From NCBI GenBank assembly GCA_020627505.1, contig JAHDGS010000013.1, positions 2,862-36,216 of the forward strand: DNA of 33,355 nt, given 5' to 3'. A model generated the notes under the pieces. That model searched no databases. It was not told the origin of the DNA and saw nothing but the letters and a program-made list of their open reading frames with translations. Numbering within the stretch: the first letter of the stretch is position 1; the number at the start of each line of letters is the position of its first letter. The DNA comes from Myxococcota bacterium. GTDB lineage: Bacteria > Myxococcota > UBA727 > JAHDBA01. The translations under genes and the position numbers were made by a program. Shown one piece after another: positions 5,621-29,883 of the stretch.

Positions 5621-5661
5621 TGGCTCATTTAAAGACATGTAGGACACGCTCGCACGGATAT

Positions 5662-5691
5662 TTGACGAAGGCGAGACAGGTGGGATTTAAT
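5662..5691 (+). promoter_or_regulatory. Candidate sigma-70-type promoter of gltF
   Basis: TTGACG (5662-5667) lies 18 nt before TTTAAT (5686-5691), each matching five of six consensus bases. The predicted transcript would begin about 10 nt before the gltF ATG, with AAGGG at 5701-5705 as ribosome binding site. The -35 half lies in a 12-nt string, ATATTTGACGAA (5658-5669), that recurs upstream of gltH. A 5-bp inverted repeat CTCGC/GCGAG (5649-5653, 5671-5675) brackets the -35 box. The 157 bases between the gltE stop and gltF otherwise hold only the gltE tail continuation. Confidence 0.45.
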
Positions 5692-5708
5692 ATATAGTAG
5701 AAGGGTTG

Positions 5709-5993
5709 ATGAAGATGAAAAAGAGATCATTATTGAGTACCGTACTGTTCATTGTTTTGATGACGATGGGGACCAGCCTATTCGCTCAAGACGAGGGCGA
5801 AGGCGGTGATGGTGTGACATTTGAGTACGCCAAACGAACTGTGATCAATTTTGATGATGATACCATTGAAGGAAGTTTAAGAACACCAGACGGCCAATAT
5901 CTCGAGGTCCGAAAACAAGTTCGGCACGAGTCGTTGATTAGAATACGTCGTCATTTCAAACAGTCTGTTTTGGGCTCGTTTTCAAATTTGTAG
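5709..5993 (+). CDS. gltF: Small secreted gliding-complex protein GltF-like
   Basis: A short exported protein of about 94 residues. The start is taken as ATG 5709; ATG 5715 (MKKRSLLSTVLF) has better spacing from AAGGG at 5701-5705 and is an equally good choice, while the TTG at 5706 is not favoured. The N-terminus is a clear signal peptide (KKRSLLSTVLFIVLMTMG, cleavage near LFAQ), followed by an acidic Gly/Glu patch (DEGEGGDG). The compact remainder ends RRHFKQSVLGSFSNL. In M. xanthus GltF is a small protein encoded between gltE and gltG and associated with the periplasmic complex; size, export signal and position match. I recognise it by context more than by sequence. gltG follows after 10 bp. 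Confidence 0.6.
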   Translation: MKMKKRSLLSTVLFIVLMTMGTSLFAQDEGEGGDGVTFEYAKRTVINFDDDTIEGSLRTPDGQYLEVRKQVRHESLIRIRRHFKQSVLGSFSNL

Positions 5994-6003
5994 GGGGAGA
6001 GTT

Positions 6004-9046: not shown

Positions 9047-12000
9047 ATGATCGATATGGTCTCCTCGGAACAAAAACCTGAAGAAATGGACAACACCTTC
9101 GATAGTCGATGGCTGTTTTTCCGTTATCGGGTTGCTCAGTCTGAAGAGCAGCGAAGTGCGCTATTAGAGACGTGCCGAAAACATCCATTTTCTTCTATTG
9201 CTGAGCAAAAAATTGTTCTTGGAGAATGCCGTCAACTCATTGAAGAAGGTTATCAATCAGTTGATTTATGGCGCTACATCATCACACTCGCTGATGAACT
9301 CAATGCATATCAATTAGCGCGTCAAGGGCGTTACTATCTTTGTTTAAATGATGACACATTGGAAGAATCGCAGAGACGTCAGTTGTGGCGTAGTCATATG
9401 CTTTCCATGTTTCGCAAGTCACATTGGCGTTGGGCATATACCACATGGTGCGATCTTGAAGCAGAATATGGTTTTTCGGGCGTCTTCAACACCCTTGGTG
9501 CAGATAATGTTGCGTTATTGTTTTCGAGTTGCGGACTTGTTCACGTGTTGCTTCGTGGGATTGAGCAAGAGATATCAAATGGGGCGCCTTCAACTTTTGT
9601 CGATGTTGAAATGGTCACAGGATTAGAGACCGAACATGCCGTGAGATGGCTATGTGCTTTAACACCTCAAATCGCTTTTGGTACTCAAATACATACGGTC
9701 GTTCATCGTTGGCTGCGAAGCATCGTGTGTGATGAGCTATCTGATGATGTGCAAACACAAGTACGCACACTTTTAGAGCGGTTTGAAGAATGGGAGGATG
9801 CGCCGCAGAAGATTTATCATGAGGCGACAACAGCACGCGATCGAGAAGACGCAGCTATCCTTTATTTAGGTTACACCCTCAAACAACATCAACGTGAAGA
9901 TGCGGATGCAATCGAAATTGAAAGCCTTTGGAAGCGTATTTTTAGACTTGTTCCGTTGATGCCTGCCGCGCTTGATGTGTTGTTGGAGAAACAAATTGCC
10001 CCTCCTGATTCAATTCAAAGATTGTTAGGACATCAATTACGTCGACAACAGTCGACAATCCAATCGACATATGTGTATCGCCGCTTATATGAAAGTGGTC
10101 CTCACAATCCGCTCAAATTATCATTACCGACATTTGACGAAATTATTGAGGGGCATTTATTTCACTTGATCGAGGCCCCCCGTTTAATCGGGCATGCGCT
10201 TGAACAAGTTGATCAAGAGAAGGCGTCAGTTGAACGTTTGAATCGCGCCTTTTCAGTTATGAAAAAGTGCGCGCATTGGCTCGATATTCGACAACCCATC
10301 CGACAAATATGGACGATGTTATACCGGCATGGCGATATCGTCAGGGCCGCTGATGTTGCATCTTGGTTGGGCAAAACCTTTTCTGATATCGAGGCGGTTG
10401 TCTCAGCTTCACAATGGTATGTCGAGCAGCATTTGATCTCAGATACCTATGGACTGATATATCGACAAATTGCATTGTCATCACCGACAACAGTGATGCA
10501 GTCTGCGCAATTGGGCACCTATCTATCTTGTAGTGAACATTTCTCCGAACATGGGCAGGCACGACAAGCCTTGGTTGTGGCAACCTGGTGCTTTCAGTTG
10601 TGGCCATCGGCAAAGACTGAGGCTGCTTTCATACGATTTGCAGAGCACCAATTATCGGATACTCAGATTTTGGACATTTATCGCTCGATTGATATTGAAC
10701 TAACCGACAATGAAAAATATATGGGTTCATTTGCGACACAACATGCTGAGGTGTCGTTTCGAGCTGGTCACTATCTTCAGGCTTTCAAACAACTCTCTGA
10801 TTTACAGCAACTTGAGTTACCACGTGAAGGACTCGAAGAAGCTTGGCTTGCTGCTTTCACTGGTATTCAAACGGATCGCGAACAGCGCTTGAGTGCATTA
10901 ACATTGTTACCTGATATAAAATCACCAGCCGTGATGAATCAGGTGCTCTCGATTTGTTTGAAGCACGCGACGTCGGTCGAAGAAAACACAAAGATTCAAG
11001 AAGCGATCGAGCGGTTCTTCCATGTTTTGGATGAATCGACGTTTACAAGTTGGCTGGCGTATGTACATAAACATGAACGTCATTCACAGGTGCGTGAGCT
11101 TTGTACGACATTGAATCAACAAAAAGTGATTTGGCAAGAACCCGTATTGGTTCGGCGTCTGATTCAAATGCTCGATGTCGTCGTGACTGATGATGCGTGG
11201 AGCCGTTCACAACTTTCTGCCGTCCTAGAACTTTTCGAAGGGATGCCATATCCAGATCGTTTGATCATTAATATCTCAAAATGGCTTGAGCGCATGAAGG
11301 ACAAGGCGCGCCTAGTCGGAGTTGTGTCAAGTCATTGGCGTTCTCAAGGTGACTTCGAACGTGCGTCAGATGTCCTTCGTCACAATTTTGATTCGCATAT
11401 TCCCCTGCAGAAGCAGCACGGTTTTGCGTTGGAATATATGGCCATTCCAGAGCTTGCATATGCGACCTCACTATCGATGTTTCTATGGAGAGCTCGATTA
11501 TTAAGTGACAAGGAATCGGAGACAGCAGAGGCATTTTTTGAAGAGTCCATTGCAGCAACATTAACACCTGTCGAACGTCAGGTTCTTTATACATCATTAA
11601 TCGAATATGTAGAAACCGAAGTGGATGATGAAGAACATGAAGACGTCTTGCGTGAAGTGGCAGAGAGCCTTATGCGGTCGTCAAGTCTCATTGGCGGTCA
11701 GCCCATTTGTCCGGCGCCAACATTTGGCACCGAAGAAGGGCATATCGATTGGCCGACAACATTCGATAATTATTGTCGTGCACTTGGGGATATATCCTAC
11801 CATCGAGGTCGTGTGATTGATGGGATCATATCTATGTTAAAGACGCGACATCTTTTGTTTGGAGATGTGTCCGACACCCTAGCCCAAACGTTAGAAAAAA
11901 CGACTGACTTAACACGCCAGCAATTTGAAAATCTCTTTAGCACGAGTGATGACTGGTATAATCTTATATTCGATAATGATGCACTCAATGCTGTAGGGCA

Positions 12001-15000
12001 GCGATTACTATCGATATGTTCTGCTCATTTTTATATGCATATTCTTGATGTTGGGGGGGAACAGGCGCGGCAAACAAAGTCGTATAAGCCTTATATGGCC
12101 ATATTGGTTTACCCTGACTTGGCGGATGAAGTCCGCGCACAATGCTGGCCACAGGTACTGAAACGGCTTGATCGTGATATTGCCGATATTCCGAATGACC
12201 TATATGCGACGGCGACGCAATCCATTTACGATGCGCTTGATGATGAGCAACAGTTTTCTTTACTAGCCGATCAGCTCGAGGGTTTACTAGATATACTTTA
12301 TGGTCTTGCCGATGAAGCGTGTGTCGATCGGTTGTCCAAAATTCGAGAAAGCGAAGCACGACTCGCTGAAGTTTATGCTGAAGACCTCATGCAGCCTGAA
12401 CGGCTATATCAACTTCTGCATCGGCGATGCACGACCTTTCCAAATGACTCAGATGCATTCGAGCAAATTCAGGGGCTTGCCAAAATTTTGAACCGACGTG
12501 CTGATATGGTTCAGCTGGCAGAGCACATGATCGATCGCCTCAAAGAGAAAACGCCTTCGCAGTGGTTTAGCATTTTTCAGGATGATATATTTTGTTCAGA
12601 CGAAAAACGTATCTCGTACCTTCAAAAATATGCGCAATATGTGCAGCATGATGATGCATGGTTTTCCGTCCTAGAAACAGGGCTATCGTCTGGTGACTGG
12701 GAATCAGCGTCTGAAGCATTACAATATCTTGATGAAGATTACTTAAAACGTCGGGCTGCCTCATTTGCGCGTTATGAAGACACGCTTTTGCGTGAATCGA
12801 CTGTGACACAGTTTAATGTTTTCATGCCATTGCTCAGACTATTCTTGAATATCAATCCCAACGCACACCGTGTCCGTGAGCGAATCATCGCTTTTCACCG
12901 TGAACATGGTGATTATCATGCGGCGCATCAGCAGTTACATGTGTTATTCGAGTTCACGCAGCGTCCTGAACATTATCAGCAATTATTAACGATGGTTTAT
13001 GAACATGGGCACGATGACACGTTGATGACGTTGTTACAGTCGACCGTGACGAGAGAGCTTTCTGCAGAAGAAGAATCTCTTGTTTGGATAAGTTATCTGC
13101 GTCTATTTGAAAACCCGGATTATTCTGAACATGCAGGATCATGGCTTGAGGCATTTTATAAAGAGCATGAGAAATGGATTGAGCTTGCTGATCTGCATGA
13201 ACAGCTTGCTGATTCCAAAACAAATACGTCTGAACAATTGCATCATTTGGATCAGATCGTTTCAACGAATTGGCATCAACTTGATCAACCGCATGCAGCA
13301 TATGATTTCGCATTGAAGGCGCTCAAAATATCATATTCAGAAGCACGTGAAGAAACATGTTTTGAATTGGCAGAGCAACTTGAAGACTTAGAACCAGTGG
13401 CACAGTTGGTGAGTCAACATCTGATATCACTGAATGATCCACATGATGTGTCCACGATAGCACGCCGCGCAGCATTCTATGTTGCCTCTGTCGATGATGA
13501 ATCTGACTGGGTCAGGCATTTTTCAGAAATTGTTGTTAAACACGATCCGCATGACGAGGCTGCATACAACTTGCTTGAGCAGCATGCTGCCCAAACGAAT
13601 TCGTTTGACGAAGCATCGGTCTTACTTGATCTACGCATAGAGGCTGCAGGAGAAACAGCCGATCAAATTAAATTGTCACAGGCATTGGTTTCGAAATATG
13701 AAAATGCAGGTGCATGGGAGCAAGCAGAGTCGACACATCGAAAACTATTGAAACTTGCTCCAAATGATTACGGTGTATTTCAACACTTTGATCAATTTTT
13801 GAAAGAACGAGAGAAAATTGACCAGCGCGAGATACACTTGAAGAAGATGGCAGCGCAATTTACCAATCACGATCAATATGGTCGCGTATTGGGAACGCTC
13901 ATCGAATTATATATTCGCGATTTAGGCGAGCCGGGTGATGCGTTACCCTGGATTGAGCAGGCGCATGAGCATGGCGAAGCGTCAAGTCGAATACTTGAAT
14001 GGCTATCCGTGGTTGATGAGCATGACACAGACGGGCATTCGACAGCATCCGTCGCAAGCTTGAAGCATCGCGTATTGCGTGATGCTCAATTATTTGAACA
14101 AGCGGCACTTCATGCTGAACGGGTCGCCACTCAACAGGAAACACAAGAAGCACAAGTCTTTTGGCTGGATCAGGCACGAGAAGATTGGTTAGAAGGTGCG
14201 CATGTTGAGCAAGCGTTTATGAATATGATCAAACGTATTGATATCGATGCCAACTTGGCAGATGGAATTCAATCGTTTCTTCAACTCGCCACAGACTCCG
14301 ATAATCTCGATATGGTTGCTGATGTGCTCTTATCGACTGCAGAAGATATCGATGATGTGAAGCTCAAAAGTGAAATGCTTTACGCTGCTGCGTCATATAT
14401 TGAAGAGCCAATTGAAGCGATACCTGCTTATACTGAAGCCGCCGCGCTCAATGACGCCTATATGGTCGATGCCGTCGAATTTGTATTGGCACATGAACAT
14501 GAAGGTGCTGATTATCAGCAACATATTTCTTCGTTGGTTAATCATATTAATGCAACGACGCATCGTTCACTTTATTTAAAGCTCCTCGAACGACAGACAC
14601 GTATTGCTCAAAAATCTGGCGATGCTGAGTCTGTCATACAAAATTTATATGAGCAGGTGAAAATCAATCCAGATGATTCACGTTTAAAATGGCGTTTACT
14701 CGATGAGCTCATACAACATCGTTCATCCGAAGAGTCGATCAAATTTGCTCGTACCTTTCTTGATGAACTCTCTTCGGTCGAGGACGACGATTGTCCGCGT
14801 CTGGCGAAGATGTTATCGGGGTTACTTGCTTCTCATAAACCTGATGCGCGTTCATGGCATGCACATTACGTCCACGCAAAGTCTTTGGGTTGGACAGATG
14901 CCCGTTGGCTAGAAGATGGTGAACAAGCTTTATCCAAATTGTCCTCCAAAATAGATCGATTAGATCGACATATGCTGAGAGTATATTTGATTCAAGCGTA

Positions 15001-18000
15001 TCATGCTGAGCAGAATTTTAACCAAGAATTAAAACTACTGACGGCACATGCAGATGAACTCAGGCGCACCCATGATTCTGCTTTGAGTGGTGTGCTGCTC
15101 TTTAAAGCACAAAGAGCAATACGATATATTGGCGAGCCCGAGACTGGATTTCAATCGCTTGGCGAATTATTAAAAAGACATCCTGATCGAGAAGATATTC
15201 GGGTGACACATGACCACTATGCCGAACAGTTTGCCGATTGGGACAGCTGGCTGAATGTTCAACGAGATATCTTTGAAGACAGTCAGGGAGTCGATCCTTT
15301 AATCGCAAAGCGATATGCGATCCGAGCTGCGGAAGGTTATCAAAAACATCTGGGTAATTATGACGCGGCTGCTGCGATGTACGAAAATGCGTTGCGGCTG
15401 AAGGTTGGCACATCGGAAGAGCAACAACATATCTTAGAAGCACTTCGGCTTATTTTTGTTGAACAAGATGAGGCTGAGGGGCAGCTTGAAATTTACGAAA
15501 AGTTGCTGGCTTTAACCCGAGCAGAAGCTGAAGAAGATGTTACAGATACACATCGTCAATACCTATCTAGTGCAATTACACTTGCACACGATCGACTGAA
15601 CGATGCCTTCTCGACGATTCGAATTGCTGAAAACCATTATCAAACACTCAGTGAAATGCCAGCACTCTTGCGAGTTGTTGCAGATGCGTATCGGTCGCAG
15701 AAAAAATTTACAGCGGCAGTTGGTTATTTTAAAACCTTCATCGCGGCGCCGTCTATCGAAGAGGAAGAGCGCATTGAAGCCCGCTTATCCTTAGCGGAGA
15801 TCTTGAGCAAAGATCTACGGCAAGCCGATGATGCACGCGATGAATGGAAAGCGGTTCTTGAAGCTGACCCATTCAATGAAACGGCGCTTGAGAATGTCCG
15901 AGAGCGATTTGAACAGTCTGGTCGAGAAGATGATGGTCGTTTGCTTGTCGAGGTCTATGGGCGTCGTCATGATCCGACTGGTGTATGTACGTTATACCGC
16001 CAAATGGGTCACCATGCGTTCGAACGTCAAGATCGTCCGAGAGCACACAAAATGTACCTTCGTGCTGCAGATTGTGCGGAGCATGAGCTGCATGATGGCG
16101 AAATTGCCTTGATGTGTATGCTGCAGTGCATGCGTGTTCGGCCAAACGATCCCGATACACGTTCACGTGTTCGTTCTTTGGCCCGCCAACATGAGATGAA
16201 TGATGTTGTCGTCGACTTCCTCGAAGAATTGATTGACGATGTTGAGCATGAGGGGCGTAAAGTCTTGGCCGCAGAACTCAAAGAGATGTTGGGTGACATT
16301 CACTTGAACGAACTCGGTGAAACAGCTGAGAGTATGCGAATATTCGAAGCTGTTTTGCAAGCCCAACCTGGTCGACCTTATGCTTTTGATTGCCTCGTAC
16401 GGATATATATCGAACGCGAAGAATATGCTGCATATCGAGAACTGCGTTTGAAACGAAGTCGATCAACGCAAGATGATAATATACGGGCAGACGATCTCGC
16501 TGAAGCCGCTCGTGTTGAGTGTGAATTCTTAGAGCGTGCTTCTGAAGGGATTCGAAATGCACGGGCCGCACTCAAGTTGGTGCCTGAGCATCCTGTTGCG
16601 CGAGACGTTTTACTGAATCATATGGATGAAAGTGATGACGCGCCATTCATGCGCCGGCTGTTGGAGCGTGCACTCGCTGACCAGCTGAAAGAAGCACCGA
16701 ATGCTCAAGAAACACTGGCACTTCGAAAACGGCTTGCCGTATTTTTGGTTGAAGAATTGGGAGACTATTCAGCAGCCCAAGATCATTGGGAACGACTTTA
16801 TGAAGAAACAGGCTTACAGGCGATTGCATTTGTGACGCTGAGTGAGATCTATCATGAAACGGGGCAGCATACGAAATTTGAAGCACTTATTTCAGAGCAA
16901 ATTGAGTTATCGACGGATGTTGAAACACGTGCAAGCCACTTGTTAACACGTGGTCGTTTGCGTCTGTTGAAGTTGAAAGATCGTCCCGCCGCTATAGAAG
17001 ATTTGACACAGGCACTACGCATTGCGCCTGGGCTTGATGAGGCCCGTTCGAGATTGATCGATGCCTATCGTGAGAACGAAGACTGGGAATTACTTGCCGA
17101 AACCATACGGAGTGCAATACGTCGAACAAGCAAGAAAGAGGATAGCGCACGTCTTCGCTTTGACCTCGCTGATGTACTGATCGATCCATTGCAGCGTATT
17201 GATGAGGCGCATGATGTTGTCATGGGAATTTTGGAACTGGGTCACCTTTCAATGGGAGAGCTTGATCGCTGCCAGAAGATATTCGAGATATCTCAGTTTG
17301 ATGAGGGCCTGTTTGGCGTATATGACCAAAAAGCTGCTCAAACAACCGGTTCAGAAGCGGCATCATATTTACTTGAGATGGCTCGCATACGGCGTAAAGA
17401 TAAAGCAGGTCGACAAGACGCCATTGACGCTTATCGAAAGGTATTACAACTTATTCCTGAAGAACAATCTGCTGGGCACGAACTATCCGAAGTCTACGCT
17501 GAACAGGCGAATTGGCAGTCATGGGTGAAGTTACAAGAAGAACGTCTTGATGTCACCAGAACACCTGCCGAACGCAAGACGATCTTGGTTCATCTGATGC
17601 AGGTGTATGAAAAAGATCTGATTCAACCAGATATGGCGTTTCTGGCGGCCTGCCGTGCCTATAAAGAAGATGAATCGGATGAGTCTATTCGCGAAAAAGT
17701 CGAAGCATTAGGCTTTAAGACTGACAATGCAGAAATTGTGATTAGTGTTTATGAAGATGTATTGGATGGCGTACCAGATGTGAGTCGGACAGCATTCTTT
17801 TATGAGCGTATGGGTGATATCGCTGTTCAGCACTTGGATGAAGCGGATGAAGCAGAACGATACTATCGACAAGTTCTTGAGATCAATAGCCGTTCATTAA
17901 TTGCACTCCAGGGCCTGAAGTCCATATATGGTCACCAGAAAAAATGGGGGCCATATGTTCAAGTCGGACGTCGACTGGCTAAGTTAGCTGATACAAAAAC

Positions 18001-21000
18001 CAAACGTTATGATGGGTTGGTTTCGATTGCTGAGCATATCTATGAATCTGAAGGTGCTGTGCCCTTGGTTTTGGATGTCTACCGCGAGGTGTTGACTATA
18101 TCTCCAAATGAGGCTGAGACGCTGCGTCGAATGAGTGAGTTATGCGCTGCTGGTGATTTGTGGGTCGACTGGCTCGAAATCATGCAGCGTCGTATTGCAG
18201 CAGCGAAAACAAAGAGTGAACAAAGAGCACTTCGCCGAGCAGTGGCCGATATATATGAGACGGAAATGAATGATTTAGAGCGTGCGCTCGAAATGCATCA
18301 TTTGAACCATGAGCACGAGCCCAATGACCTACCGACGTTGCGCTCCATGACGCATATCTTGACGGAGTTGGATCGTCAGCGAGAAGTGATTGATTATTAC
18401 GAAAAAATCAATCTCACTTCGAGAGACTTGAATGAACGTATTGAAGTTCTGTCCAAAGTTGCTGCTATTTGGGATACGGGTCTAAACAACCAGAATGAAG
18501 CTTTACGCTCATTAGAGAAGATTCTTGAGATTGACCCTGGGCATATCGGAACACTTGCTTATGCTGAGCGCCTTGCGAAAGGACTCGGTGATCAAAACCG
18601 CCAAATTCGCTTACAGCGCCAATATGCGTCGCACGTTGACGCGCCTGAAACACGATTGCGTTTATTATCAGAACTCGGCGCATCACTTCACGGACACGGG
18701 GAAACAGAAGCCGCTGAACGTGCCTATTATGATGCGCTTGAGCTTGATGCGCAATATCAACCGGCCCTCATCGGCCTTGCCGATTTCTATCAACAACAGC
18801 AGCGATATAAAGAGCGCGTTAAAGTTCAGAAAGATTTGGTTCAAGTCACCCAAGACGTTGACTTAAAACTGAATACACTCACAGAAATGGGTGATACGCT
18901 ATTACAACATATTGGTGACCTTGATGCTGCTGATGCAATCTATCAGCGTGTATTAAGACTCGAGCCAAAGAACTTGCATGCGCTTTCACAATTGCAAGAG
19001 ATTAGTGATTCGAATGGACATCAGCGCAATGCGCTCACGTGGTTACAGCAACGTGCGCGAGCGACAATCGATGAACAAGAACGTGCGATTCTATTCAGTG
19101 AGGCTGGGGATCGATTTATCGCTGCTTTTGCAGACCCGCGTGCGGCAACCGAAGAGTACGAGCAAGCACTCTTGGCTGTCAATCATCATGTGCCAGCGGG
19201 ACTGGCTTTGATGGATATTTACTATAAATCTGAAAATTGGAAAGCACTCGAGGCGTTATTATTATGGTTGGTCGAAGAAAAAGAAGCGGCACAAGGTCCC
19301 AAAGAGCGTGCCGCAATTCACTTCCGGCTAGCCTATGCTGCCGAACGACTGGGGCATGAAGAAATTGCATATACGCATTTTGGACAAGCACATAAACTCG
19401 ATCAGAAATCTCTGAATGCAGCTGAAGGCTATATTCGTGGTTTGGTGAAAAGAGAGCAATCACTGGCTGCCGTCAAAGCATATCAAACAATTTTGGTCCA
19501 TCATCACGACAATCTTTCGCGTGCAGAGATTGTTGAAATACACCATCATGTTGCAGAGCTCTATTTGAAAGTTGGCGATCGTGAACGCTGTGAAAAGAGT
19601 CTTTTGCGCGGACTCGAACTCGACCCGCATCATCAGCCTTGTCTGACATTGCTCGCGCATACGCAACAGCTCTCTCAGAATTACGAAGCAGCGTATGAAT
19701 CGATGAATCGGCTCATTCAATTACAATCGGGCGTCGAAAAAGTTGATACGCTAAGGGCACTGTCGACACTATCGGAAGAACATTTAAATGATATCTATCG
19801 TGCGATAGATGCGCTCGAGGAGGCCAATCGACAGCAACCTGGTGATATCACGATTCTGCGTCAGTTATGTAAGTATTACCAAAAAACAAAGCAATCGAGT
19901 CGTGCTGTTGATATTTTGTCTGAACTGATTCGCTTAACAAAAAATAAAGCAGATAAAGTCCGCCTCCATCACAGCCTTGGTGAGACGTACCGCGACGAAC
20001 TTCGGCAAACCGAAGTTGCGATTCAATGCTTTAACGCTGCGCTTGATATTGATGCAAAACATTTGAAGAGTTTTCAGGCCATCGAACAAGTCTTAACACA
20101 CGAAAAAGATTGGCGTCTGCTGGAAAAAAATTACATCAAAATGTTGCAGCGACCGATCGAAGATACACAGGCGAAGCTGGTCATTTGGCAAACCCTGGGT
20201 GACTTATATCGATTCAAAATTAAGGACTTTAAAAAAGCGGTTCAAGCTTACGAAGTGGTCCAACGGGCACACCCTGAAGATCTTGACTTAGTTGTACGGT
20301 TGGCAGAACTTCAAAGAAAAGATCCGACGTCTTTAGATAAGGCGAGAGCTAATTATATCGTTCTATTGAACCGCAGTGTTGAACACGAGCGTGCTGCCGT
20401 TCATGCATTGTTTTCGATTGCGATTGAGCAACGCGATCTTGATTACGCGTATGTGATTGCCGGTGCAGCACTTGCATTGGGTGATATGAACGAAAAAGAA
20501 GAACAGTTTTATCGTGCTTACAAGCGAAAGAAAAAGAAACAATCTCCAAAATCATTGACAATGGAGTTATGGATGTCACATGTGATCGTTGATGAGGTGA
20601 ATCGCGATCTCGCGACCATTGCATCCGCATTATCTCGCTTTGGGGCTGAGCTCTTATTCAAGCCAACAAAAAACATCACACGGAATCGAAAGATTGAAGA
20701 GATTGATGTCGATGCGCCTGTCGTTTCATTTTTTGCGAAGCAAGTTCGTTATGTACGAGAAATGATGGGATTACATCGTGTCAGATTTTTTGTACAAAAG
20801 TCTGCGAATGCCCCACTTGAGCCCGTTCCGGTTGTCGATCCAACACTTGTTGTCGGTGTTGAGCATGAACTCCTTCAAGAGACAAATGAACCATTGATTT
20901 GGTTTAATATTGCACGCCAATTAGGGGGGCTGATGCCACCATTTATCGTGCCACGTTTGCTTGGGCGAACGCAGTTCCAAGCATTGGTTGAACAGGTCAT

Positions 21001-21382
21001 TTTGTCGATCGATCCAACCTATGGCTACGTGTCCGATGCACAAACGTTGGCGAAATACAAAAAACTCGTTGCCCGACTGATGGAAAACCCACAATTTGTG
21101 GATCAAGTTCAACCTGCCATTCAGGGCTTATTAACACGAGGAGAGCGGGTATCTTATCGCGGCTATATGGAGGGATTGGAATACTCCATTTTGAGAGCGG
21201 CATTTTTGATTACCAATGATATTGAAATTACGACGCGTGCGATGCGTGCGCCAGCGCCTTCGACACGTTATGCACCAGCTTGGGGAGATCGCTTGCGTTC
21301 GCTTGTTCGCTATTGTGCTTCCGATCGCTATATGGAAGTACGACATGCTCTACGACTGGGGCAAAGGATTAAAAAGGGTTAG
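9047..21382 (+). CDS. gltI: Giant cytoplasmic TPR protein GltI (AgmK-like)
   Basis: This is the largest gene in the window: 4111 codons with no signal peptide or membrane helix. ATG 9047 is only 2 nt after AGGA, so ATG 9056, in frame and 11 nt after it, may be the true start. Residues ~1-3830 are degenerate TPR/HAT helix hairpins. The repeats become more canonical toward the C-terminal half, with recurring A-x-x-x-Y-x-x-x-L-x-x-x-P patterns such as EAERYYRQVLEINSRSLIAL and AADAIYQRVLRLEPKNLHAL. Residues ~3840-4090 are a distinct non-TPR domain (PTLVVGVEHELL, LIWFNIARQLGGLMPP). M. xanthus GltI/AgmK is a cytoplasmic TPR giant of similar size encoded next to gltJ. It likely acts as a scaffold linking the cytoplasmic cluster to the GltG/GltJ tails. 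The stop is 2 bp before gltJ, so the two are almost certainly co-translated. Confidence 0.82.
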   Translation: MIDMVSSEQKPEEMDNTFDSRWLFFRYRVAQSEEQRSALLETCRKHPFSSIAEQKIVLGECRQLIEEGYQSVDLWRYIITLADELNAYQLARQGRYYLCLNDDTLEESQRRQLWRSHMLSMFRKSHWRWAYTTWCDLEAEYGFSGVFNTLGADNVALLFSSCGLVHVLLRGIEQEISNGAPSTFVDVEMVTGLETEHAVRWLCALTPQIAFGTQIHTVVHRWLRSIVCDELSDDVQTQVRTLLERFEEWEDAPQKIYHEATTARDREDAAILYLGYTLKQHQREDADAIEIESLWKRIFRLVPLMPAALDVLLEKQIAPPDSIQRLLGHQLRRQQSTIQSTYVYRRLYESGPHNPLKLSLPTFDEIIEGHLFHLIEAPRLIGHALEQVDQEKASVERLNRAFSVMKKCAHWLDIRQPIRQIWTMLYRHGDIVRAADVASWLGKTFSDIEAVVSASQWYVEQHLISDTYGLIYRQIALSSPTTVMQSAQLGTYLSCSEHFSEHGQARQALVVATWCFQLWPSAKTEAAFIRFAEHQLSDTQILDIYRSIDIELTDNEKYMGSFATQHAEVSFRAGHYLQAFKQLSDLQQLELPREGLEEAWLAAFTGIQTDREQRLSALTLLPDIKSPAVMNQVLSICLKHATSVEENTKIQEAIERFFHVLDESTFTSWLAYVHKHERHSQVRELCTTLNQQKVIWQEPVLVRRLIQMLDVVVTDDAWSRSQLSAVLELFEGMPYPDRLIINISKWLERMKDKARLVGVVSSHWRSQGDFERASDVLRHNFDSHIPLQKQHGFALEYMAIPELAYATSLSMFLWRARLLSDKESETAEAFFEESIAATLTPVERQVLYTSLIEYVETEVDDEEHEDVLREVAESLMRSSSLIGGQPICPAPTFGTEEGHIDWPTTFDNYCRALGDISYHRGRVIDGIISMLKTRHLLFGDVSDTLAQTLEKTTDLTRQQFENLFSTSDDWYNLIFDNDALNAVGQRLLSICSAHFYMHILDVGGEQARQTKSYKPYMAILVYPDLADEVRAQCWPQVLKRLDRDIADIPNDLYATATQSIYDALDDEQQFSLLADQLEGLLDILYGLADEACVDRLSKIRESEARLAEVYAEDLMQPERLYQLLHRRCTTFPNDSDAFEQIQGLAKILNRRADMVQLAEHMIDRLKEKTPSQWFSIFQDDIFCSDEKRISYLQKYAQYVQHDDAWFSVLETGLSSGDWESASEALQYLDEDYLKRRAASFARYEDTLLRESTVTQFNVFMPLLRLFLNINPNAHRVRERIIAFHREHGDYHAAHQQLHVLFEFTQRPEHYQQLLTMVYEHGHDDTLMTLLQSTVTRELSAEEESLVWISYLRLFENPDYSEHAGSWLEAFYKEHEKWIELADLHEQLADSKTNTSEQLHHLDQIVSTNWHQLDQPHAAYDFALKALKISYSEAREETCFELAEQLEDLEPVAQLVSQHLISLNDPHDVSTIARRAAFYVASVDDESDWVRHFSEIVVKHDPHDEAAYNLLEQHAAQTNSFDEASVLLDLRIEAAGETADQIKLSQALVSKYENAGAWEQAESTHRKLLKLAPNDYGVFQHFDQFLKEREKIDQREIHLKKMAAQFTNHDQYGRVLGTLIELYIRDLGEPGDALPWIEQAHEHGEASSRILEWLSVVDEHDTDGHSTASVASLKHRVLRDAQLFEQAALHAERVATQQETQEAQVFWLDQAREDWLEGAHVEQAFMNMIKRIDIDANLADGIQSFLQLATDSDNLDMVADVLLSTAEDIDDVKLKSEMLYAAASYIEEPIEAIPAYTEAAALNDAYMVDAVEFVLAHEHEGADYQQHISSLVNHINATTHRSLYLKLLERQTRIAQKSGDAESVIQNLYEQVKINPDDSRLKWRLLDELIQHRSSEESIKFARTFLDELSSVEDDDCPRLAKMLSGLLASHKPDARSWHAHYVHAKSLGWTDARWLEDGEQALSKLSSKIDRLDRHMLRVYLIQAYHAEQNFNQELKLLTAHADELRRTHDSALSGVLLFKAQRAIRYIGEPETGFQSLGELLKRHPDREDIRVTHDHYAEQFADWDSWLNVQRDIFEDSQGVDPLIAKRYAIRAAEGYQKHLGNYDAAAAMYENALRLKVGTSEEQQHILEALRLIFVEQDEAEGQLEIYEKLLALTRAEAEEDVTDTHRQYLSSAITLAHDRLNDAFSTIRIAENHYQTLSEMPALLRVVADAYRSQKKFTAAVGYFKTFIAAPSIEEEERIEARLSLAEILSKDLRQADDARDEWKAVLEADPFNETALENVRERFEQSGREDDGRLLVEVYGRRHDPTGVCTLYRQMGHHAFERQDRPRAHKMYLRAADCAEHELHDGEIALMCMLQCMRVRPNDPDTRSRVRSLARQHEMNDVVVDFLEELIDDVEHEGRKVLAAELKEMLGDIHLNELGETAESMRIFEAVLQAQPGRPYAFDCLVRIYIEREEYAAYRELRLKRSRSTQDDNIRADDLAEAARVECEFLERASEGIRNARAALKLVPEHPVARDVLLNHMDESDDAPFMRRLLERALADQLKEAPNAQETLALRKRLAVFLVEELGDYSAAQDHWERLYEETGLQAIAFVTLSEIYHETGQHTKFEALISEQIELSTDVETRASHLLTRGRLRLLKLKDRPAAIEDLTQALRIAPGLDEARSRLIDAYRENEDWELLAETIRSAIRRTSKKEDSARLRFDLADVLIDPLQRIDEAHDVVMGILELGHLSMGELDRCQKIFEISQFDEGLFGVYDQKAAQTTGSEAASYLLEMARIRRKDKAGRQDAIDAYRKVLQLIPEEQSAGHELSEVYAEQANWQSWVKLQEERLDVTRTPAERKTILVHLMQVYEKDLIQPDMAFLAACRAYKEDESDESIREKVEALGFKTDNAEIVISVYEDVLDGVPDVSRTAFFYERMGDIAVQHLDEADEAERYYRQVLEINSRSLIALQGLKSIYGHQKKWGPYVQVGRRLAKLADTKTKRYDGLVSIAEHIYESEGAVPLVLDVYREVLTISPNEAETLRRMSELCAAGDLWVDWLEIMQRRIAAAKTKSEQRALRRAVADIYETEMNDLERALEMHHLNHEHEPNDLPTLRSMTHILTELDRQREVIDYYEKINLTSRDLNERIEVLSKVAAIWDTGLNNQNEALRSLEKILEIDPGHIGTLAYAERLAKGLGDQNRQIRLQRQYASHVDAPETRLRLLSELGASLHGHGETEAAERAYYDALELDAQYQPALIGLADFYQQQQRYKERVKVQKDLVQVTQDVDLKLNTLTEMGDTLLQHIGDLDAADAIYQRVLRLEPKNLHALSQLQEISDSNGHQRNALTWLQQRARATIDEQERAILFSEAGDRFIAAFADPRAATEEYEQALLAVNHHVPAGLALMDIYYKSENWKALEALLLWLVEEKEAAQGPKERAAIHFRLAYAAERLGHEEIAYTHFGQAHKLDQKSLNAAEGYIRGLVKREQSLAAVKAYQTILVHHHDNLSRAEIVEIHHHVAELYLKVGDRERCEKSLLRGLELDPHHQPCLTLLAHTQQLSQNYEAAYESMNRLIQLQSGVEKVDTLRALSTLSEEHLNDIYRAIDALEEANRQQPGDITILRQLCKYYQKTKQSSRAVDILSELIRLTKNKADKVRLHHSLGETYRDELRQTEVAIQCFNAALDIDAKHLKSFQAIEQVLTHEKDWRLLEKNYIKMLQRPIEDTQAKLVIWQTLGDLYRFKIKDFKKAVQAYEVVQRAHPEDLDLVVRLAELQRKDPTSLDKARANYIVLLNRSVEHERAAVHALFSIAIEQRDLDYAYVIAGAALALGDMNEKEEQFYRAYKRKKKKQSPKSLTMELWMSHVIVDEVNRDLATIASALSRFGAELLFKPTKNITRNRKIEEIDVDAPVVSFFAKQVRYVREMMGLHRVRFFVQKSANAPLEPVPVVDPTLVVGVEHELLQETNEPLIWFNIARQLGGLMPPFIVPRLLGRTQFQALVEQVILSIDPTYGYVSDAQTLAKYKKLVARLMENPQFVDQVQPAIQGLLTRGERVSYRGYMEGLEYSILRAAFLITNDIEITTRAMRAPAPSTRYAPAWGDRLRSLVRYCASDRYMEVRHALRLGQRIKKG

Positions 21383-23296: not shown

Positions 23297-25870
23297 ATGA
23301 CGCGAACAGATGTTTCAGTGATTGATCATCTCGTCCCGATTGTACGACGTTATATACGTCAAGATCCATCACTGAATCAATTCCTTGATGAGGCACCAAA
23401 TATCGAGTCCTTAGACCAGATTGATTTTGTTGATGTGGCATATACGAAACGTGCATTAAGAAAATGCCGACGTGCTTTGTTTATATATACGGCCGCTCAA
23501 GAGGCGCGGGGAGAAGCATTTCATCATAGCGCACAATGATGGACACGCTTTGCCGACCGGGCCATTCAAATTGCTGCAGAACAAGCTGCTCGTATTCTTG
23601 AAGCAGAAGTCCCTTCAGATATACACCAAGACTATATTCAGTGCCGACGCTTTATCATCGGTCTCGGAAAACTCGGTACGCAAGAATTGAACCCATCTAG
23701 TGATATCGATTTGATGATTGTTTATGAACGACCGGAATCAACAACATTTCATATGCGGTACCATCAAAAATGGGTACAGCAGTTTATTCAAATCTTAAGT
23801 GAGCAGACCGAAGATGGTTTCGTGTTTAGAGTTGACCTCGATCTTCGACCAGAGGGCCGGCAAGGCCCGCTTTTGATTTCAAGAGATGCACTTCAAAAAT
23901 ATTATAAGAATAGAGCGCGCTTTTGGGAACGTGTGGCCATGCTCAAGTATCGATTTATTGTAGAGGAAGGCCCGACAGAAGCACTCGCAGAAACAATCGA
24001 ATCATTTTTACAGCGTGATGAATCGGAGACAGCGCTCGGTGAAGCTCTTGCGCATATTCGTGCACGGATTGAAGCTGAAGAAGGGGCAAAGGGATTTAAT
24101 ATAAAGACGGGTGTTGGCGGTATTCGTGATATTGAATTCATCGTACATTACTTTCAGTTGCTTTCAATTACACGTGGACTTGAGATGGTACGTGGAAGTG
24201 TTCTCGACTTGCTTGAGTGGATGAAACGTCAAAGTCTCTTGCAAGATGAAGATATCGAAATCCTGAGAGATGCTTACCATTTCTTCCGGCGGGTCGAACA
24301 TATTTTACAGTATGCTGGAGACCAACAAAAGCATGAGTTGCCCAAAGGGGTCTTTCGAAAACCGTGGCTCAATCGGGTGTGGTCTTTTTGGGCACTGAAG
24401 CAGAGAGGGCAGCAGGGATCTGAAGCTTTTGAGCACTGCTGCCAGAAGGTGAGAAATATATTCTTGCGTGTCATGGGTGTGCTTGAAACATATGAAGATA
24501 ATTTCGTGATGCTGGCGCTTGATGTTGATGAGCCACTTCATGTACGTGAGCAAGCGCTCTCGCGTCTCGGTTTTGTGCGTTGTCAGGATAAGCTCGAGAC
24601 AATCGAAATACTAAAGAAACAAGATTGGGACAACTGGCAGTGTCGAGAACTATTGATGATGTGTTCTGCTGATGAACGTCCTGAAAGAATATGGCGCTAT
24701 TGCGAAGCACATATATTTTTACTGCCCAGTCAGACAATCGATCGTGCCCATTTTCGTGCAATGAAAAGCTGGTTTAGATGGACAGGTAAAAGTCCGTGGC
24801 TCTTGCGAATTGTGACACGAGATCATGATGACTGCCTGGCACAAGATTGGATTGCACGTGAAATTGCACAAGATGCCATATCTGACATTGACTCGAGGAC
24901 ACAACAGATTGATGCTCGATTTGTTGAACTTCATCGACAGTACCTACAATATGATTTATCGGCACGAGAGATGCTGTCTGCGTTAACGCACGTCGGCCAA
25001 TCGTGGCTATCGAATATGTGGCGAGCCGAGCGTGCGATAGATCTCACACAAGACATTCCGTGCTTACTCTATGGCTCATTGGCGGTCGAACAGCTCTGTG
25101 TTGGCTCGGATCTCGATCTTGTGATCATTGTGCCTGATCATATTGATCGCTCTACGATCGAGCCGCATATATTAAGGTGGCTCAGTCGAATGCGCGCAGC
25201 ACTTTCAGCAGGGAAAGGCTTTCCTGTTGATCTTCGTCTACGTCCACATGGCCGTCAAGGACAACTTCTCAATAGCCTGTCCACATGGAAAGATTACCAA
25301 CACCACGATGCGCATTTTTGGGAACATCTTGCGCTCGTCCGATCGCGGTTTATGTCTGAAGACCATCAGTTAAAAGCAGATTGCCGACAGTTGTTGATCG
25401 AGCACAAGCCAGATAATTTAGGTTGGAAAACACTCGATATGCGTGCGCGTATTCTGAGAGAGCGCCAGAGCCCAAATGGATTCCACATCAAAATAAGTGA
25501 AGGTGGTTTGGTCGATATTGATTTTATGATCGCGGCCGTTTTGTGGAATGCCCTCAAAGATAATGACATTCCATGGCATCATAACCTATATCAAATGCTA
25601 GATACCCTTGCTGAGCATCGCGTGATCGATACACAAGATGCTGCATTCTTAAGTCATGCGCTTGATCTCTATAATCACATTCGTATTTGGTATTGGTTTC
25701 TTGGCGAAGAAAACGAGCCTGTGTGCCAATTGCATGATGCACTCTTTGAACAATGTGCGCGTCAAATGAATCTTGGTTACTCGACGGCCATGCAACTGCA
25801 AGAACGTTTGCTTGATACAGCTGCCCAAGTTCGGGAAATCACGGGTCGCTATCTCAATCGGCTTTCTTAG
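23297..25870 (+). pseudogene. glnE: GlnE-type bifunctional adenylyltransferase/adenylyl-removase, interrupted by an in-frame TGA
   Basis: Reading from ATG 23297, 80 codons (including KRALRKCRRALFIYTAAQEA, the helix before the first catalytic domain) end at TGA 23537-23539. The same frame then stays open to TAG 25868-25870. After the TGA comes the removase motif GLGKLGTQELNPSSDIDL, then RVDLDLRPEGRQGP, ERVAMLKYRF, GVGGIRDIEFIV and the adenylyltransferase half (GSDLDLVII, PVDLRLRPHGRQG, GGLVDIDFMI). GlnE normally modifies and de-modifies glutamine synthetase. The coding potential is ~857 codons, shorter than the ~945 of E. coli GlnE, mostly at the N-terminus. No ATG, GTG, TTG or CTG lies between the TGA and the first motif; the first is TTG 23687, inside that motif, so reinitiation would lose the removase G-K-L-G. 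Nonsense mutation, readthrough or base error are all possible. It begins 7 bp after gltJ. Confidence 0.8.
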
Positions 25871-26131: not shown

Positions 26132-27613
26132 ATGCAACTCCAGCTCAGCAAATACGATTTTGATGATGTCCCGCGCTTGAAAAAAGATAAGGTCAGACGT
26201 GGAAATCAACTGCTGAGCGTATTACCCGGTGCGCTCTTTAAAGATGCATTTTCAGAGCGATTGGCGACTATCTTCGGAAAGCGTTTTGGCACATCTGTCA
26301 AAGCGGGTTTCGAGGGACATCTTGAAGTGACACAGGCATTGTTTGAGAAACGTTTTGCGCAACAAACTGTCTGGCTTGTCCTGGAGTTGGATACCCTCGG
26401 TAGAACATGCTTTATCGATATTGATCGTGAATTGATTCAACATCTCTTATCACAACTCGTGTCGCTGCCAGCGATTCGATTCGATCTGAATTTCCCGCTG
26501 ACAGAGCTTGAACGCGCAGGAATTATGTATACTTTACTGGGGATTCTGAGCGAGTGCCATTTGCAAGACTTCGGCCTAAGTGCACGTATACGTTCAGTCA
26601 TCCTACCTGGCGAAGAAGGCGCAGGTCCTGTGCATCAAGCGTCTCCGACAGTGACTGGTCTCGGCTATTATCTCAACTATGAGAATGTTCGTTACGGATT
26701 TCGGATTTGGCTCCCGCAAGATGTCCTTGAACAAGCCCAAGCAGATGATATCCTCGGTACAGAGGCCTATTTAAGCCGCTATGGTCAACAGTTAGAGCAA
26801 AGAATGGCGCTGTTTGCACGGTGCCCGGCAGAGGTTTATGTTGAAGCCGGTCGAATTGATCTATCCGCGGATGATATCGCACGTCTGGAAGTCGACGATA
26901 TCATTGTCTTTGATCAATGTGGCTTATCAGCTCAGGACAATATGCTCTCTGGAGAGCTTTCTTGTTATGTTGGTCAAAAGCGGAAAGTGCAAGTGATTGC
27001 TCAATATGAAGAGCATGCACACGCACCAGCGGAAGTCGGCATCGAGCAAATTCACATCATAGATATGCCGGATATGCCACGTTGGATGATGGTCGAGACG
27101 ACAACACAAGCATTTTCAGATACATGGGCAACAGATGAGGCGATTTTGAAAGGATTATCGAATAATTTAGACGATCGTATTGACGCTTCGCAACAGAATA
27201 GTGTTGAATGTGGCATGTCTTCCGAGAATATGAACGCCAACCGCTTCCAAATGAGTGAACCTGATGATTTCGACGACTTTGATGATCTCGAACTCGATGA
27301 ACAGGAACCTGATAGTGGCAGCAATATGAGCGAAGAAATTGATGAAGATATGATCGAGCCAGTGAATATGGATCACGAACGCGCAGCATTGGCAGCAGAT
27401 GTGCCCGTCTCTCTTGTCGTCGAGCTCGGTCGAGTCGAACTATCAGCAGCAGATTTAATGCGTGTTCGGCCAGGTATTGTGATTGAGCTTAATCGACAAC
27501 CAGGTGCGCCTGTTGATCTTGTTGTGGGCGATCGTCGAATTGGTAAAGGTGAAATTGTCCAAATTGAAGGCGAGCTTGGCGTTCGTATTCTATCTATCGC
27601 AGATGGAGCATAA
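26132..27613 (+). CDS. sctQ: Type III secretion C-ring protein, two SPOA domains (SctQ / FliM-FliN-like)
   Basis: A 493-residue cytoplasmic protein. An N-terminal region (~1-200) is followed by a first SPOA domain at ~225-300 (CPAEVYVEAGRIDLSADDIA, GELSCYVGQKRKVQV). A very acidic linker spans ~366-415 (DDFDDFDDLELDEQEPD), and a second SPOA domain lies at ~423-493 (VPVSLVVELGRVELSAADLM, VDLVVGDRRIGKGEIV). Two SPOA domains on one chain are typical of SctQ, the sorting-platform protein of non-flagellar type III systems; flagella usually split them between FliM and FliN. The ATG has no good ribosome site. A TTGATT...TATACA pair (26097, 26118) with 15-nt spacing could give a nearly leaderless transcript, so the start is uncertain. 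The FliO-like gene starts 2 bp after the stop. Confidence 0.75.
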   Translation: MQLQLSKYDFDDVPRLKKDKVRRGNQLLSVLPGALFKDAFSERLATIFGKRFGTSVKAGFEGHLEVTQALFEKRFAQQTVWLVLELDTLGRTCFIDIDRELIQHLLSQLVSLPAIRFDLNFPLTELERAGIMYTLLGILSECHLQDFGLSARIRSVILPGEEGAGPVHQASPTVTGLGYYLNYENVRYGFRIWLPQDVLEQAQADDILGTEAYLSRYGQQLEQRMALFARCPAEVYVEAGRIDLSADDIARLEVDDIIVFDQCGLSAQDNMLSGELSCYVGQKRKVQVIAQYEEHAHAPAEVGIEQIHIIDMPDMPRWMMVETTTQAFSDTWATDEAILKGLSNNLDDRIDASQQNSVECGMSSENMNANRFQMSEPDDFDDFDDLELDEQEPDSGSNMSEEIDEDMIEPVNMDHERAALAADVPVSLVVELGRVELSAADLMRVRPGIVIELNRQPGAPVDLVVGDRRIGKGEIVQIEGELGVRILSIADGA

Positions 27614-27615
27614 AT

Positions 27616-27999
27616 ATGGAAACGGAACAACTTGGTTGGGTTTTTGTCAAAACAATGTTGATGCTTGGCATTGTGTTGGGCTTGATTTATGTCTTGTTTC
27701 ATTATGGTCTTGGGCGATTGTTGAAGTCACAAAAGACAGGGCAACAGATTGTTGTGAAAGAGCGTATTGCAATTGATGCCAAACATGCGGTTTGTATGCT
27801 TGAAGTGAATGGCGAAGAACTTTTGGTTGGTGTTTCAGATGGTCAGATTGCACTATTAAAAGATATGAGTCTGAATTCGCCGCCTCGACCGGTTGACGCC
27901 AGTACATTGGTTCGGGAGCATACCGCGCCCACACGCAGCTTTCGCTCGATATTATCTGGGACGTATCGATCTTCAATCGAGGATACCCATGTTGTTTAG
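27616..27999 (+). CDS. fliO: FliO-like export-gate assembly protein
   Basis: A 127-residue protein with one N-terminal membrane helix (~9-30, FVKTMLMLGIVLGLIYVLFH). The short cytoplasmic domain follows the FliO pattern: VVKERIAIDAKHAVCMLEVNGEELLVGVSDGQIALL, here shown as two ideas, a K-x-x-I-x-x-D-A-K-H core and an E-x-L-L-V-G-V strand. FliO helps FliP assemble into the flagellar export gate. It sits directly upstream of and overlaps the SctR/FliP gene by 11 bp, its position in flagellar operons. Non-flagellar type III clusters normally lack it, so its presence beside SctQ/SctR-like proteins is unusual. Confidence 0.7.
   Translation: METEQLGWVFVKTMLMLGIVLGLIYVLFHYGLGRLLKSQKTGQQIVVKERIAIDAKHAVCMLEVNGEELLVGVSDGQIALLKDMSLNSPPRPVDASTLVREHTAPTRSFRSILSGTYRSSIEDTHVV
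27979..27983 (+). promoter_or_regulatory. Ribosome binding site fixing the sctR start
   Basis: GAGGA lies 5 nt before ATG 27989, inside the 3' end of the fliO-like gene. It places the sctR start 96 bases after the longest possible frame start and gives an 11-bp overlap with fliO. Confidence 0.7.
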
Positions 28000-28786
28000 A
28001 CGTCATCATTTGCCAACATACTGGGCTTATTACTTCATCGGCCTTCTTGGCTTATGGACACAATCTCTATGGGCTGCAAAAGATACAGCCTCTCTGACCT
28101 CTGACTTGCTGAACCAAGATTCGATCGCCAATCGACCTGTCATTTTGATGGGCGCGATGACAGCGCTTTCACTGGTGCCGTTTGTCGGTATGATGGTGAC
28201 ATCGTTCGTCAAAATTGCGGTCGTCCTATCGATTACGCGTCAAGCCTTAGGGACACAGCAAGCACCACCGACAACAGTGATCACGGGCTTATCGATTATT
28301 TTGACCGCATATGTGATGCAGCCAGTTGGACTCCAGGTTCTTGAACGCGCCGATCGAATTATTCAAACCGAGGGTGAATTTCTCAGCGGAGATAATGTCG
28401 ATTTGATTGTCAAAGCGTATGAAGCAGGGAAAGAGCCAATTAAGGAATTTTTGAAACGACATGCAGCCCCAAAGAATAAAGAGATGTTTTATCGCGTGGC
28501 ACATCGTATGCGTGCAGAAGCCGATCGTGATCGACTTGCGCGAGATGATATGATTGTCCTCGTGCCTGCTTTTGTGATTTCGGAGCTGACACGGGCGTTT
28601 CAGATTGGTTTTATCATCTTCATACCGTTCCTCGTTGTAGATATGGTCGTCTCAAATATTCTGATGGCGCTTGGGATGCAAATGTTATCGCCAACGACAA
28701 TTTCACTCCCATTCAAAATTTTGTTATTTGTGTTGGTTGATGGCTGGTATCTCATCAGTCGTGGACTTGTGCTGGGGTATCAATAA
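27989..28786 (+). CDS. sctR: Type III export-gate protein SctR (FliP family)
   Basis: The start is set at ATG 27989: GAGGA (27979-27983) lies 5 nt upstream and the next residues are a hydrophobic signal-like segment. A longer frame back to 27893 would run deep into fliO. The product has 265 residues. Family hallmarks are MMVTSFVKIAVVLSITRQAL, GTQQAPP, AYVMQPVG, LVPAFVISELTRAFQIGF and the C-terminal VDGWYLISRGLVLGYQ. The phrases VVSNILMALGMQMLSPTTIS and SRGLVLGY resemble SctR/YscR more than FliP. The protein forms the SctR5 core of the inner-membrane export gate. Its TAA overlaps the sctS ATG (TAATG), giving tight coupling. Confidence 0.88.
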   Translation: MLFRRHHLPTYWAYYFIGLLGLWTQSLWAAKDTASLTSDLLNQDSIANRPVILMGAMTALSLVPFVGMMVTSFVKIAVVLSITRQALGTQQAPPTTVITGLSIILTAYVMQPVGLQVLERADRIIQTEGEFLSGDNVDLIVKAYEAGKEPIKEFLKRHAAPKNKEMFYRVAHRMRAEADRDRLARDDMIVLVPAFVISELTRAFQIGFIIFIPFLVVDMVVSNILMALGMQMLSPTTISLPFKILLFVLVDGWYLISRGLVLGYQ

Positions 28787-29058
28787 TGTCGGTTCAAGAC
28801 TTCGTGATGCAAATCTCTTCAGAGGCCCTGTTCTTGGTTATTTTGGTTTCTCTACCGATGTTGGTGACGTCGCTCGTTGTGGGTATCCTTGTTGCGATTT
28901 TTTCGGCGACGACTCAGATTCAAGACCAGTCATTAAGTTTCGTCGTCAAGATGATTTCTGTTTTTATGGTGATGGCAGCGGTTGGTTCTTGGGCTGGCTC
29001 CACAATGATTCGCTTCGCGGCGCGCTGTATGAACGGCATTGTCGAGGTCGCTTTTTAG
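28786..29058 (+). CDS. sctS: Type III export-gate protein SctS (FliQ family)
   Basis: Ninety residues, the normal family length, with two membrane helices (ALFLVILVSLPMLVTSLVVG and FVVKMISVFMVMAAVGSWAG) around the conserved loop TQIQDQSLSF. SctS/FliQ packs outside the SctR ring to seal the export channel. The start overlaps the sctR stop, and sctT begins 10 bp after the stop. Confidence 0.88.
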   Translation: MSVQDFVMQISSEALFLVILVSLPMLVTSLVVGILVAIFSATTQIQDQSLSFVVKMISVFMVMAAVGSWAGSTMIRFAARCMNGIVEVAF

Positions 29059-29067
29059 TGCTGTCAA

Positions 29068-29883
29068 ATGACTGACGTATTTTTTGCCATTCAAAAGCAA
29101 ATTGATTCGACACGCAATATTGTCATTTTTGCTTTGATTATGGCCCGGGTGATGTCCATCGTTTTATTGACGCCATTTTTAGGTGGCAAGAATGCGCCAC
29201 CCACAGTGAAGATGGGCATCGGAATCACGCTCACTTTCGTGCTGTGGCCGACAGTTGTCATGTCGATGCCGGGCGATGTTCCCATCACACCTGTCGGCTT
29301 CATCTTAATGATGATGAAAGAGGCCTTTGTTGGGCTCATCATGGGATTTATCTGTGCTGAAGTATTTTATACCGTCGAAATATCGGGGCAGCTTGTCGAT
29401 ATTTTTCGTGGCGCAAACCAAATCCAGGTTCAAGTTCCGGAGATTCAAGAACGGTCGAGTGCATTTGGTAACTTCAATTATCAGTTGTTGTTGTGCTTAT
29501 TTTTGGCACTTGGCTTACATACTTTTTTTATCGAAACATTATTCGAAAGTTTTCGGTTGATACCCATTAATACGCTCCCAGGCATTGAACAGGGATTCTG
29601 GGCTTTGACTGATGCGCTTCTCAAGCTTGGGCAGCATATTTTGACAACTGCGGTCATGCTAGCGGCACCCATTGCGATGGTTTCATTGATTACTGAGACG
29701 ACCTTTGGTCTTATGAATAAAGTCGCACCGCAAATCAACGCCTATTTTATGGCGTTTCCAGCGAAAGTATTTGCCGGCGTTGCTGTATTCTACTTGGCGC
29801 TGGAGTTGATCGTCTCAGAGATGCTTAAGCATAGTTATGAAATGCTTCAACTCTTAGAGCATATTGTCGGGTTACTTGAATGA
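29068..29883 (+). CDS. sctT: Type III export-gate protein SctT (FliR family)
   Basis: A 271-residue polytopic inner-membrane protein of normal family length. The conserved early segment LLTPFLGGKNAPPTVKMGIG is followed by KEAFVGLIMGFICAEVFYTVEISGQLVD and a near C-terminal APQINAYFMAFPAKVF. SctT/FliR caps the SctR-SctS assembly. No sctU/flhB follows, which is the usual next gene; instead the TGA overlaps the ATG of a dehydrogenase-like gene. The rest of a secretion apparatus (SctU, SctV, the ATPase SctN, rings) must lie elsewhere if the system works. Confidence 0.87.
   Translation: MTDVFFAIQKQIDSTRNIVIFALIMARVMSIVLLTPFLGGKNAPPTVKMGIGITLTFVLWPTVVMSMPGDVPITPVGFILMMMKEAFVGLIMGFICAEVFYTVEISGQLVDIFRGANQIQVQVPEIQERSSAFGNFNYQLLLCLFLALGLHTFFIETLFESFRLIPINTLPGIEQGFWALTDALLKLGQHILTTAVMLAAPIAMVSLITETTFGLMNKVAPQINAYFMAFPAKVFAGVAVFYLALELIVSEMLKHSYEMLQLLEHIVGLLE

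What the first reader, a model, noticed from the sequence alone, without database searches (positions are those of the whole stretch)
23297..23705. glnE is split by a single in-frame TGA, with no usable restart before the first catalytic motif
The codons on both sides of CAA TGA TGG read as one GlnE, and the frame after the TGA contains GLGKLGTQELNPSSDIDL. No ATG, GTG, TTG or CTG lies between the TGA and that motif; the first TTG (23687) is inside it. The gene therefore makes full-length enzyme only by readthrough or recoding, otherwise only an adenylyltransferase-half product, unless the TGA is a base error. More than 770 codons downstream stay intact, arguing for a very recent lesion or continued function.
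Basis: partly seen in the sequence, partly recalled or inferred. Interest (0 to 1): 0.62.

Follow-up and report, generated by a model that had tools for sequence, protein, structure and literature searches.

The report
Stop codon inside a glnE gene
A nitrogen-control gene (glnE) in an assembled bacterial genome carries one stop codon near its start, most likely a recent ordinary mutation (or a base error) and not a special way of decoding the gene.

Summary
In detail: TGA at 23537-23539 interrupts one glnE frame, with 80 codons before it and 776 open codons after it, and no ATG, GTG, TTG or CTG before the first nucleotidyltransferase motif. The genome is a fragmented, 70%-complete assembly. 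Recoding finds no support: no SelB or tRNA-Sec over cut-off, no UCA tRNA, a normal tRNA-Trp, an intact RF2-like gene, TGA ending 106 of 373 long frames, and no unusual RNA fold after the TGA. The position is variable in relatives (80 loci: E 37, D 16, no W, one C, no stop). The downstream frame keeps both catalytic halves. With 329 of 6984 substitutions able to make a second stop, any loss is recent, under about 3% neutral divergence. A second gene in a 26% sample of the genome has a like in-frame TGA at a variable position. Best reading: a recent nonsense mutation, fixed or polymorphic, or less likely a base error. Low interest.

The parts
23297..23536 (+). N-terminal 80 codons of glnE, from ATG
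   Evidence: residues 48-80 lie in the Pfam GlnE match 48-226
23537..23539 (+). in-frame TGA (residue 81)
23540..25870 (+). 776 open codons of glnE after the TGA, ending in TAG
23660..23713 (+). first nucleotidyltransferase motif GLGKLGTQELNPSSDIDL (adenylyl-removing half)
   Evidence: (aligned to 1v4a)
23687..23716 (+). first possible in-frame restarts: TTG 23687, TTG 23711, ATG 23714; all too late to keep the motif
25064..25120 (+). second nucleotidyltransferase motif LLYGSLAVEQLCVGSDLDL (adenylyltransferase half), intact
   Evidence: D605, D607, D645 invariant in 4 of 4 rows

Best explanation
It is an ordinary glnE gene (glutamine synthetase adenylyltransferase/adenylyl-removing enzyme) that has recently taken a single-base nonsense change in the strain or strain consensus that was assembled. 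Translation stops after 80 residues. At most trace full-length enzyme would come from background misreading of UGA; any product from internal starts would lack the first catalytic motif and so the deadenylylating half. Shown: the TGA, the intact frame on both sides, the absence of known recoding machinery in the held 70% of the genome, and the variability of the residue in relatives. Inferred: that the base is real, that it is recent, and its effect on the enzyme.
For: Single lesion with 776 open codons and all catalytic residues kept. 329 of 6984 possible substitutions after the TGA would make a further stop, so no second stop puts the loss below about 2.7% neutral divergence at the 95% level (my arithmetic, equal rates, no indels). 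Relatives carry diverse sense residues there: A in the only same-family genome, R and L in two same-order genomes, and E 37, D 16, G 6, A 4, S 3, N 3, Q 2, L 2, R 1, C 1, gap 5 in 80 loci. A second such lesion exists in the same genome, in an amidohydrolase-like gene (L091:2984-2986) where relatives have S, L, H or F, so sporadic nonsense changes occur here. A published survey finds in-frame stops in bacterial genes widespread and mostly short-lived, at the scale of polymorphism (PMC7918605; abstract, first part of Results and first part of Discussion read).
Against: No reads and no sister strain are at hand, so a base error cannot be told from a mutation. The downstream frame shows no decay, which also fits continued function by readthrough. 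Both homology-checked in-frame stops in the sample are TGA, not TAA or TAG (2 of 2; small number).
Confidence: 0.66

Rival explanations
1. Base-calling, assembly or consensus error: the organism has a sense codon there.
For: Fragmented assembly of 167 contigs, 70.3% complete; the frame is otherwise perfect. Other MAG records also hold broken copies, e.g. L199 with a disrupted motif.
Against: Sampled genes are clean: 21 of 21 ABC-domain matches, 3 of 3 release-factor matches and 1 of 1 GlnA match have no internal stop. Substitution errors are rare in well-covered short-read assemblies (general knowledge; platform and coverage unknown here).
Confidence: 0.22
2. UGA is read through at a useful level (background misreading or a programmed event), giving low amounts of full-length GlnE, so the gene remains functional.
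For: Frame and catalytic residues intact; a second gene with a single in-frame TGA and no near restart; in-frame stops under purifying selection are reported in bacteria (PMC7918605).
Against: No unusual fold after the TGA (z 0.14); tRNA-Trp has anticodon CCA, a full 5-bp anticodon stem, A9 and G24 (my numbering), so none of the UGA-reading changes seen in the passages of PMC13092985; no UCA tRNA among 29; RF2-like gene intact; no W at this column in 80 loci.
Confidence: 0.09
3. Selenocysteine insertion at the TGA, or genome-wide reassignment of TGA.
For: Only that the frame continues after a TGA.
Against: Best SelB-model hit 179.2 bits against a cut-off of 242.25, in a 402-residue frame of EF-Tu size; best tRNA-Sec score 45.8 against 47, at a place ARAGORN calls tRNA-Ser(TGA); C in 1 of 80 at this column; TGA ends 106 of 373 long frames. 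The genome is only 70% complete, so absence is not proof.
Confidence: 0.02

Closest known systems
GlnE, bifunctional glutamine synthetase adenylyltransferase/adenylyl-removing enzyme (Pfam PF03710 and PF08335; solved domains 1v4a and 3k7d)
   Same: two nucleotidyltransferase halves, each with its motif and Asp residues
   Different: one in-frame TGA at residue 81; scores below the NCBIfam equivalog cut-off (331.2 of 487), as a diverged member
In-frame stop codons in bacterial genes that persist at polymorphism scale (PMC7918605)
   Same: single in-frame stop in an otherwise intact gene
   Different: there shown by orthologous stops in two or more genomes; here one genome only

Membership tests
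GlnE | Pfam GlnE domain over cut-off | tested here: met
   201.7 bits, cut-off 24, 2 stretches (read-through protein)
GlnE | both catalytic halves with their Asp residues | tested here: met
   D136, D138, D180, D182 and D605, D607, D645 invariant in 4 of 4 rows
GlnE | NCBIfam full-length equivalog cut-off | tested here: not met
   331.2 bits, cut-off 487; read as a diverged homologue, not proof of the same function
GlnE | one uninterrupted reading frame | tested here: not met
   TGA at 23537
selenoprotein | SelB in the genome | tested here: not met
   best 179.2 bits, cut-off 242.25; genome 70% complete
selenoprotein | tRNA-Sec | tested here: not met
   0 over cut-off; genome 70% complete
selenoprotein | structured element after the TGA | tested here: not met
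   z 0.14, 105 of 200 shuffles fold at least as well; no Rfam match in the window
selenoprotein | Cys or Sec at the column in relatives | tested here: not met
   C in 1 of 80 loci
TGA reassignment (TGA = Trp) | suppressor-type tRNA or altered tRNA-Trp | tested here: not met
   29 tRNAs, none UCA; [quoted passage not shown]
TGA reassignment (TGA = Trp) | TGA no longer a terminator | tested here: not met
   TGA ends 106 of 373 long frames in the sample
pseudogene or nonsense polymorphism | intact copies in sister strains, TGA supported by reads | not testable with these tools
   no reads; no same-genus genome listed, one same-family genome

The most novel reading that the evidence does not exclude
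In this lineage UGA is a leaky stop that is tolerated inside otherwise intact genes: two single-TGA genes (glnE and an amidohydrolase-like gene) in a quarter of the genome would then be low-output alleles kept by readthrough.
Probability: 0.06. Interest if true: 0.45.

Novelty: already known. Interest (0 to 1): 0.12.

Why it matters
As a single-genome nonsense codon it matters little beyond annotation: the gene should be marked as interrupted, and the 727-residue ORF from TTG 23687 should not be taken as the real protein. If reads and peptides showed that full-length GlnE is made, it would be a test case for in-gene UGA readthrough in this lineage, in an enzyme whose usual regulator PII was not found here.

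Tried and rejected
Selenocysteine, TGA reassignment and altered tRNA-Trp were tested and not supported. Out-of-frame restart: ATG codons overlap the TGA (AATGATGG) but in another frame, and the frame from the ATG at 23539 closes after about 20 codons (read by eye). A conserved split gene: not seen in relatives. Close relatives: the first scan of genome contigs found none; the second, with a four-row alignment, kept the best 80 of 108 loci, best-segment identities 24-40%, none of them a sister species. The plasmid collection gave only distant hits. Literature: searches listed no paper about a glnE nonsense codon in this group; I saw listings only, except PMC7918605 (abstract, first part of Results, first part of Discussion) and PMC13092985 (abstract and passages).

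Scan for other in-frame stops: a cut of 8 on both sides gave 0 of 964, glnE itself scoring 4.1 and 3.9, so the cut was lowered after seeing this (2 of 964 pass at >2 with the first start 20 or more codons on; these are glnE and L091:2984). On the larger sample, 30-codon windows gave 65 of 3629 at >1, of which 22 with frames of 60 or more codons on both sides were printed, mostly ordinary neighbouring genes in one frame by eye, and glnE was not among them; 40-codon windows gave 31 of 1674 and 50-codon windows 14 of 794 at >0 with the first start 12 or more codons on, both including glnE and L091. Of these only glnE and L091 were checked by homology; the rest look like gene ends or short frames by eye. 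The scan misses stops followed soon by a start codon.

Full report
Observation. The window lies at G000:C84:2862-36216 in a 2.77-Mb assembly of 167 contigs, 70.3% complete. ATG 23297 opens a frame that is broken by TGA at 23537-23539 and then runs open for 776 codons to TAG at 25868-25870. No ATG, GTG, TTG or CTG lies in frame between the TGA and TTG 23687. The genome search itself reports one TGA inside the match.

One gene, not two. The Pfam GlnE match spans residues 48-226, across the TGA at residue 81. Reading through raises the GlnE model score from 318.0 to 331.2 bits. The protein matches two solved GlnE domains (1v4a, 3k7d) and keeps the catalytic aspartates of both halves. It is a diverged member: 857 residues, below the NCBIfam equivalog cut-off of 487 bits. 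In the relatives search 24 of 97 genomes gave a match, the count including G000 itself.

Placement. Of the held relatives only G001 is of the same family and none of the same genus. The contig of G001 that bears glnE has the same length (112,772) as a record titled Myxococcota bacterium, so the phylum is probably Myxococcota (inference).

What stands at the TGA in relatives. In the only same-family genome (G001) the aligned residue is A; two same-order genomes have R and L. Pairwise tblastn agrees for G001 and L005, but places A rather than R for L004, so the local alignment is not certain. In 80 loci from named records, most of them distant, the column holds E 37, D 16, G 6, A 4, S 3, N 3, Q 2, L 2, R 1, C 1 and a gap in 5; no W and no stop. 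Control columns are nearly fixed (K125 in 78 of 80, D180 in 80 of 80). The site is therefore variable, not a conserved Trp or Cys. Of these 80 loci, 75 are open for at least 30 codons upstream of this site, 4 run into a contig edge and 1 (L199) has a stop: its frame is disrupted at the GMGKLG motif, an independent broken copy in another MAG.

Recoding tests. SelB: best hit 179.2 bits, cut-off 242.25, in a frame of 402 residues that fits EF-Tu (EF-Tu is my reading of the size). tRNA-Sec: none over cut-off. tRNAs: 29 found over cut-off, none with anticodon UCA; tRNA-Trp is CCA, with a 5-bp anticodon stem, A9 and G24 by my numbering. This matters because PMC13092985 reports that 4-bp-stem tRNA-Trp, which can read UGA, is more prominent in several phyla including Myxococcota (passage). 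Release factors: three RF-1-family frames without internal stops; one of 376 residues has the SPF and GGQ motifs of RF2 (motifs recalled) and one of 356 residues resembles RF1. TGA ends 106 of 373 long frames in the sample. RNA after the TGA folds no better than shuffles (z 0.14), and no Rfam family matches the window. All absences are limited by the 70% completeness.

How recent. Of 6984 single substitutions possible in the 776 codons, 329 would make a stop. With neutral drift of d substitutions per site the expected number of new stops is about 110 d, so the absence of any gives d below about 0.027 at the 95% level (my arithmetic). Either the lesion is recent, or it is no lesion (error), or the gene is still under selection.

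Is it alone? In a 26% sample of the genome including the window (731,771 bases) a second gene has an in-frame TGA without a near restart: L091:2984, between 351 and 235 open codons. It is amidohydrolase-like by recall of its motifs; 76 of 97 genomes match it, G000 included, and in the 11 loci aligned the residue is L in 8, and S (same family), H and F in one each. Two sporadic TGAs at unrelated variable residues speak for ordinary nonsense changes; that both are TGA is noted, but the number is too small to weigh.

Setting. The genome has one GlnA match, which keeps the tyrosine region (DKDIYGLSPEE; the adenylylation site is recalled). PII was not found here, nor in the 93%-complete same-family genome G001; 6 of 15 same-family or same-order genomes have it. 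Loss of GlnE control may therefore be less costly in this family (inference), but G001 keeps an open glnE frame (938 residues).

Verdict. The best explanation is a recent single-base nonsense mutation, fixed or polymorphic (0.66), with base error next (0.22); functional readthrough (0.09) and Sec or reassignment (0.02) have no positive evidence. This is an ordinary finding.

Noticed in passing
L091:1973-3694 (G000:C94), TGA at 2984: A second single in-frame TGA, in an amidohydrolase-like gene, with no start for 65 codons after it; relatives have L, S, H or F there.
   Followed up: partly
whole genomes G000 and G001: No PII (PF00543) found in this genome or its same-family relative, though both carry GlnE; 6 of 15 same-family or same-order genomes have PII.
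   Followed up: partly
26132-29883: Next to glnE: FliM/N-C, FliO, FliP and FliR-type export genes in a row, i.e. a flagellar or type III secretion apparatus cluster; TPR and FHA genes lie at 876-8154.
   Followed up: no
9047-21382: One 4111-residue open frame fills over a third of the window; not analysed.
   Followed up: no
L199 around 2881-3000: A glnE of another MAG (JABTVA010000002.1) is disrupted at the GMGKLG motif, with a TAG and apparently a frame disturbance.
   Followed up: partly
G061:C18:38582-39931: One amidohydrolase-family match in a relative carries an internal TAG.
   Followed up: no
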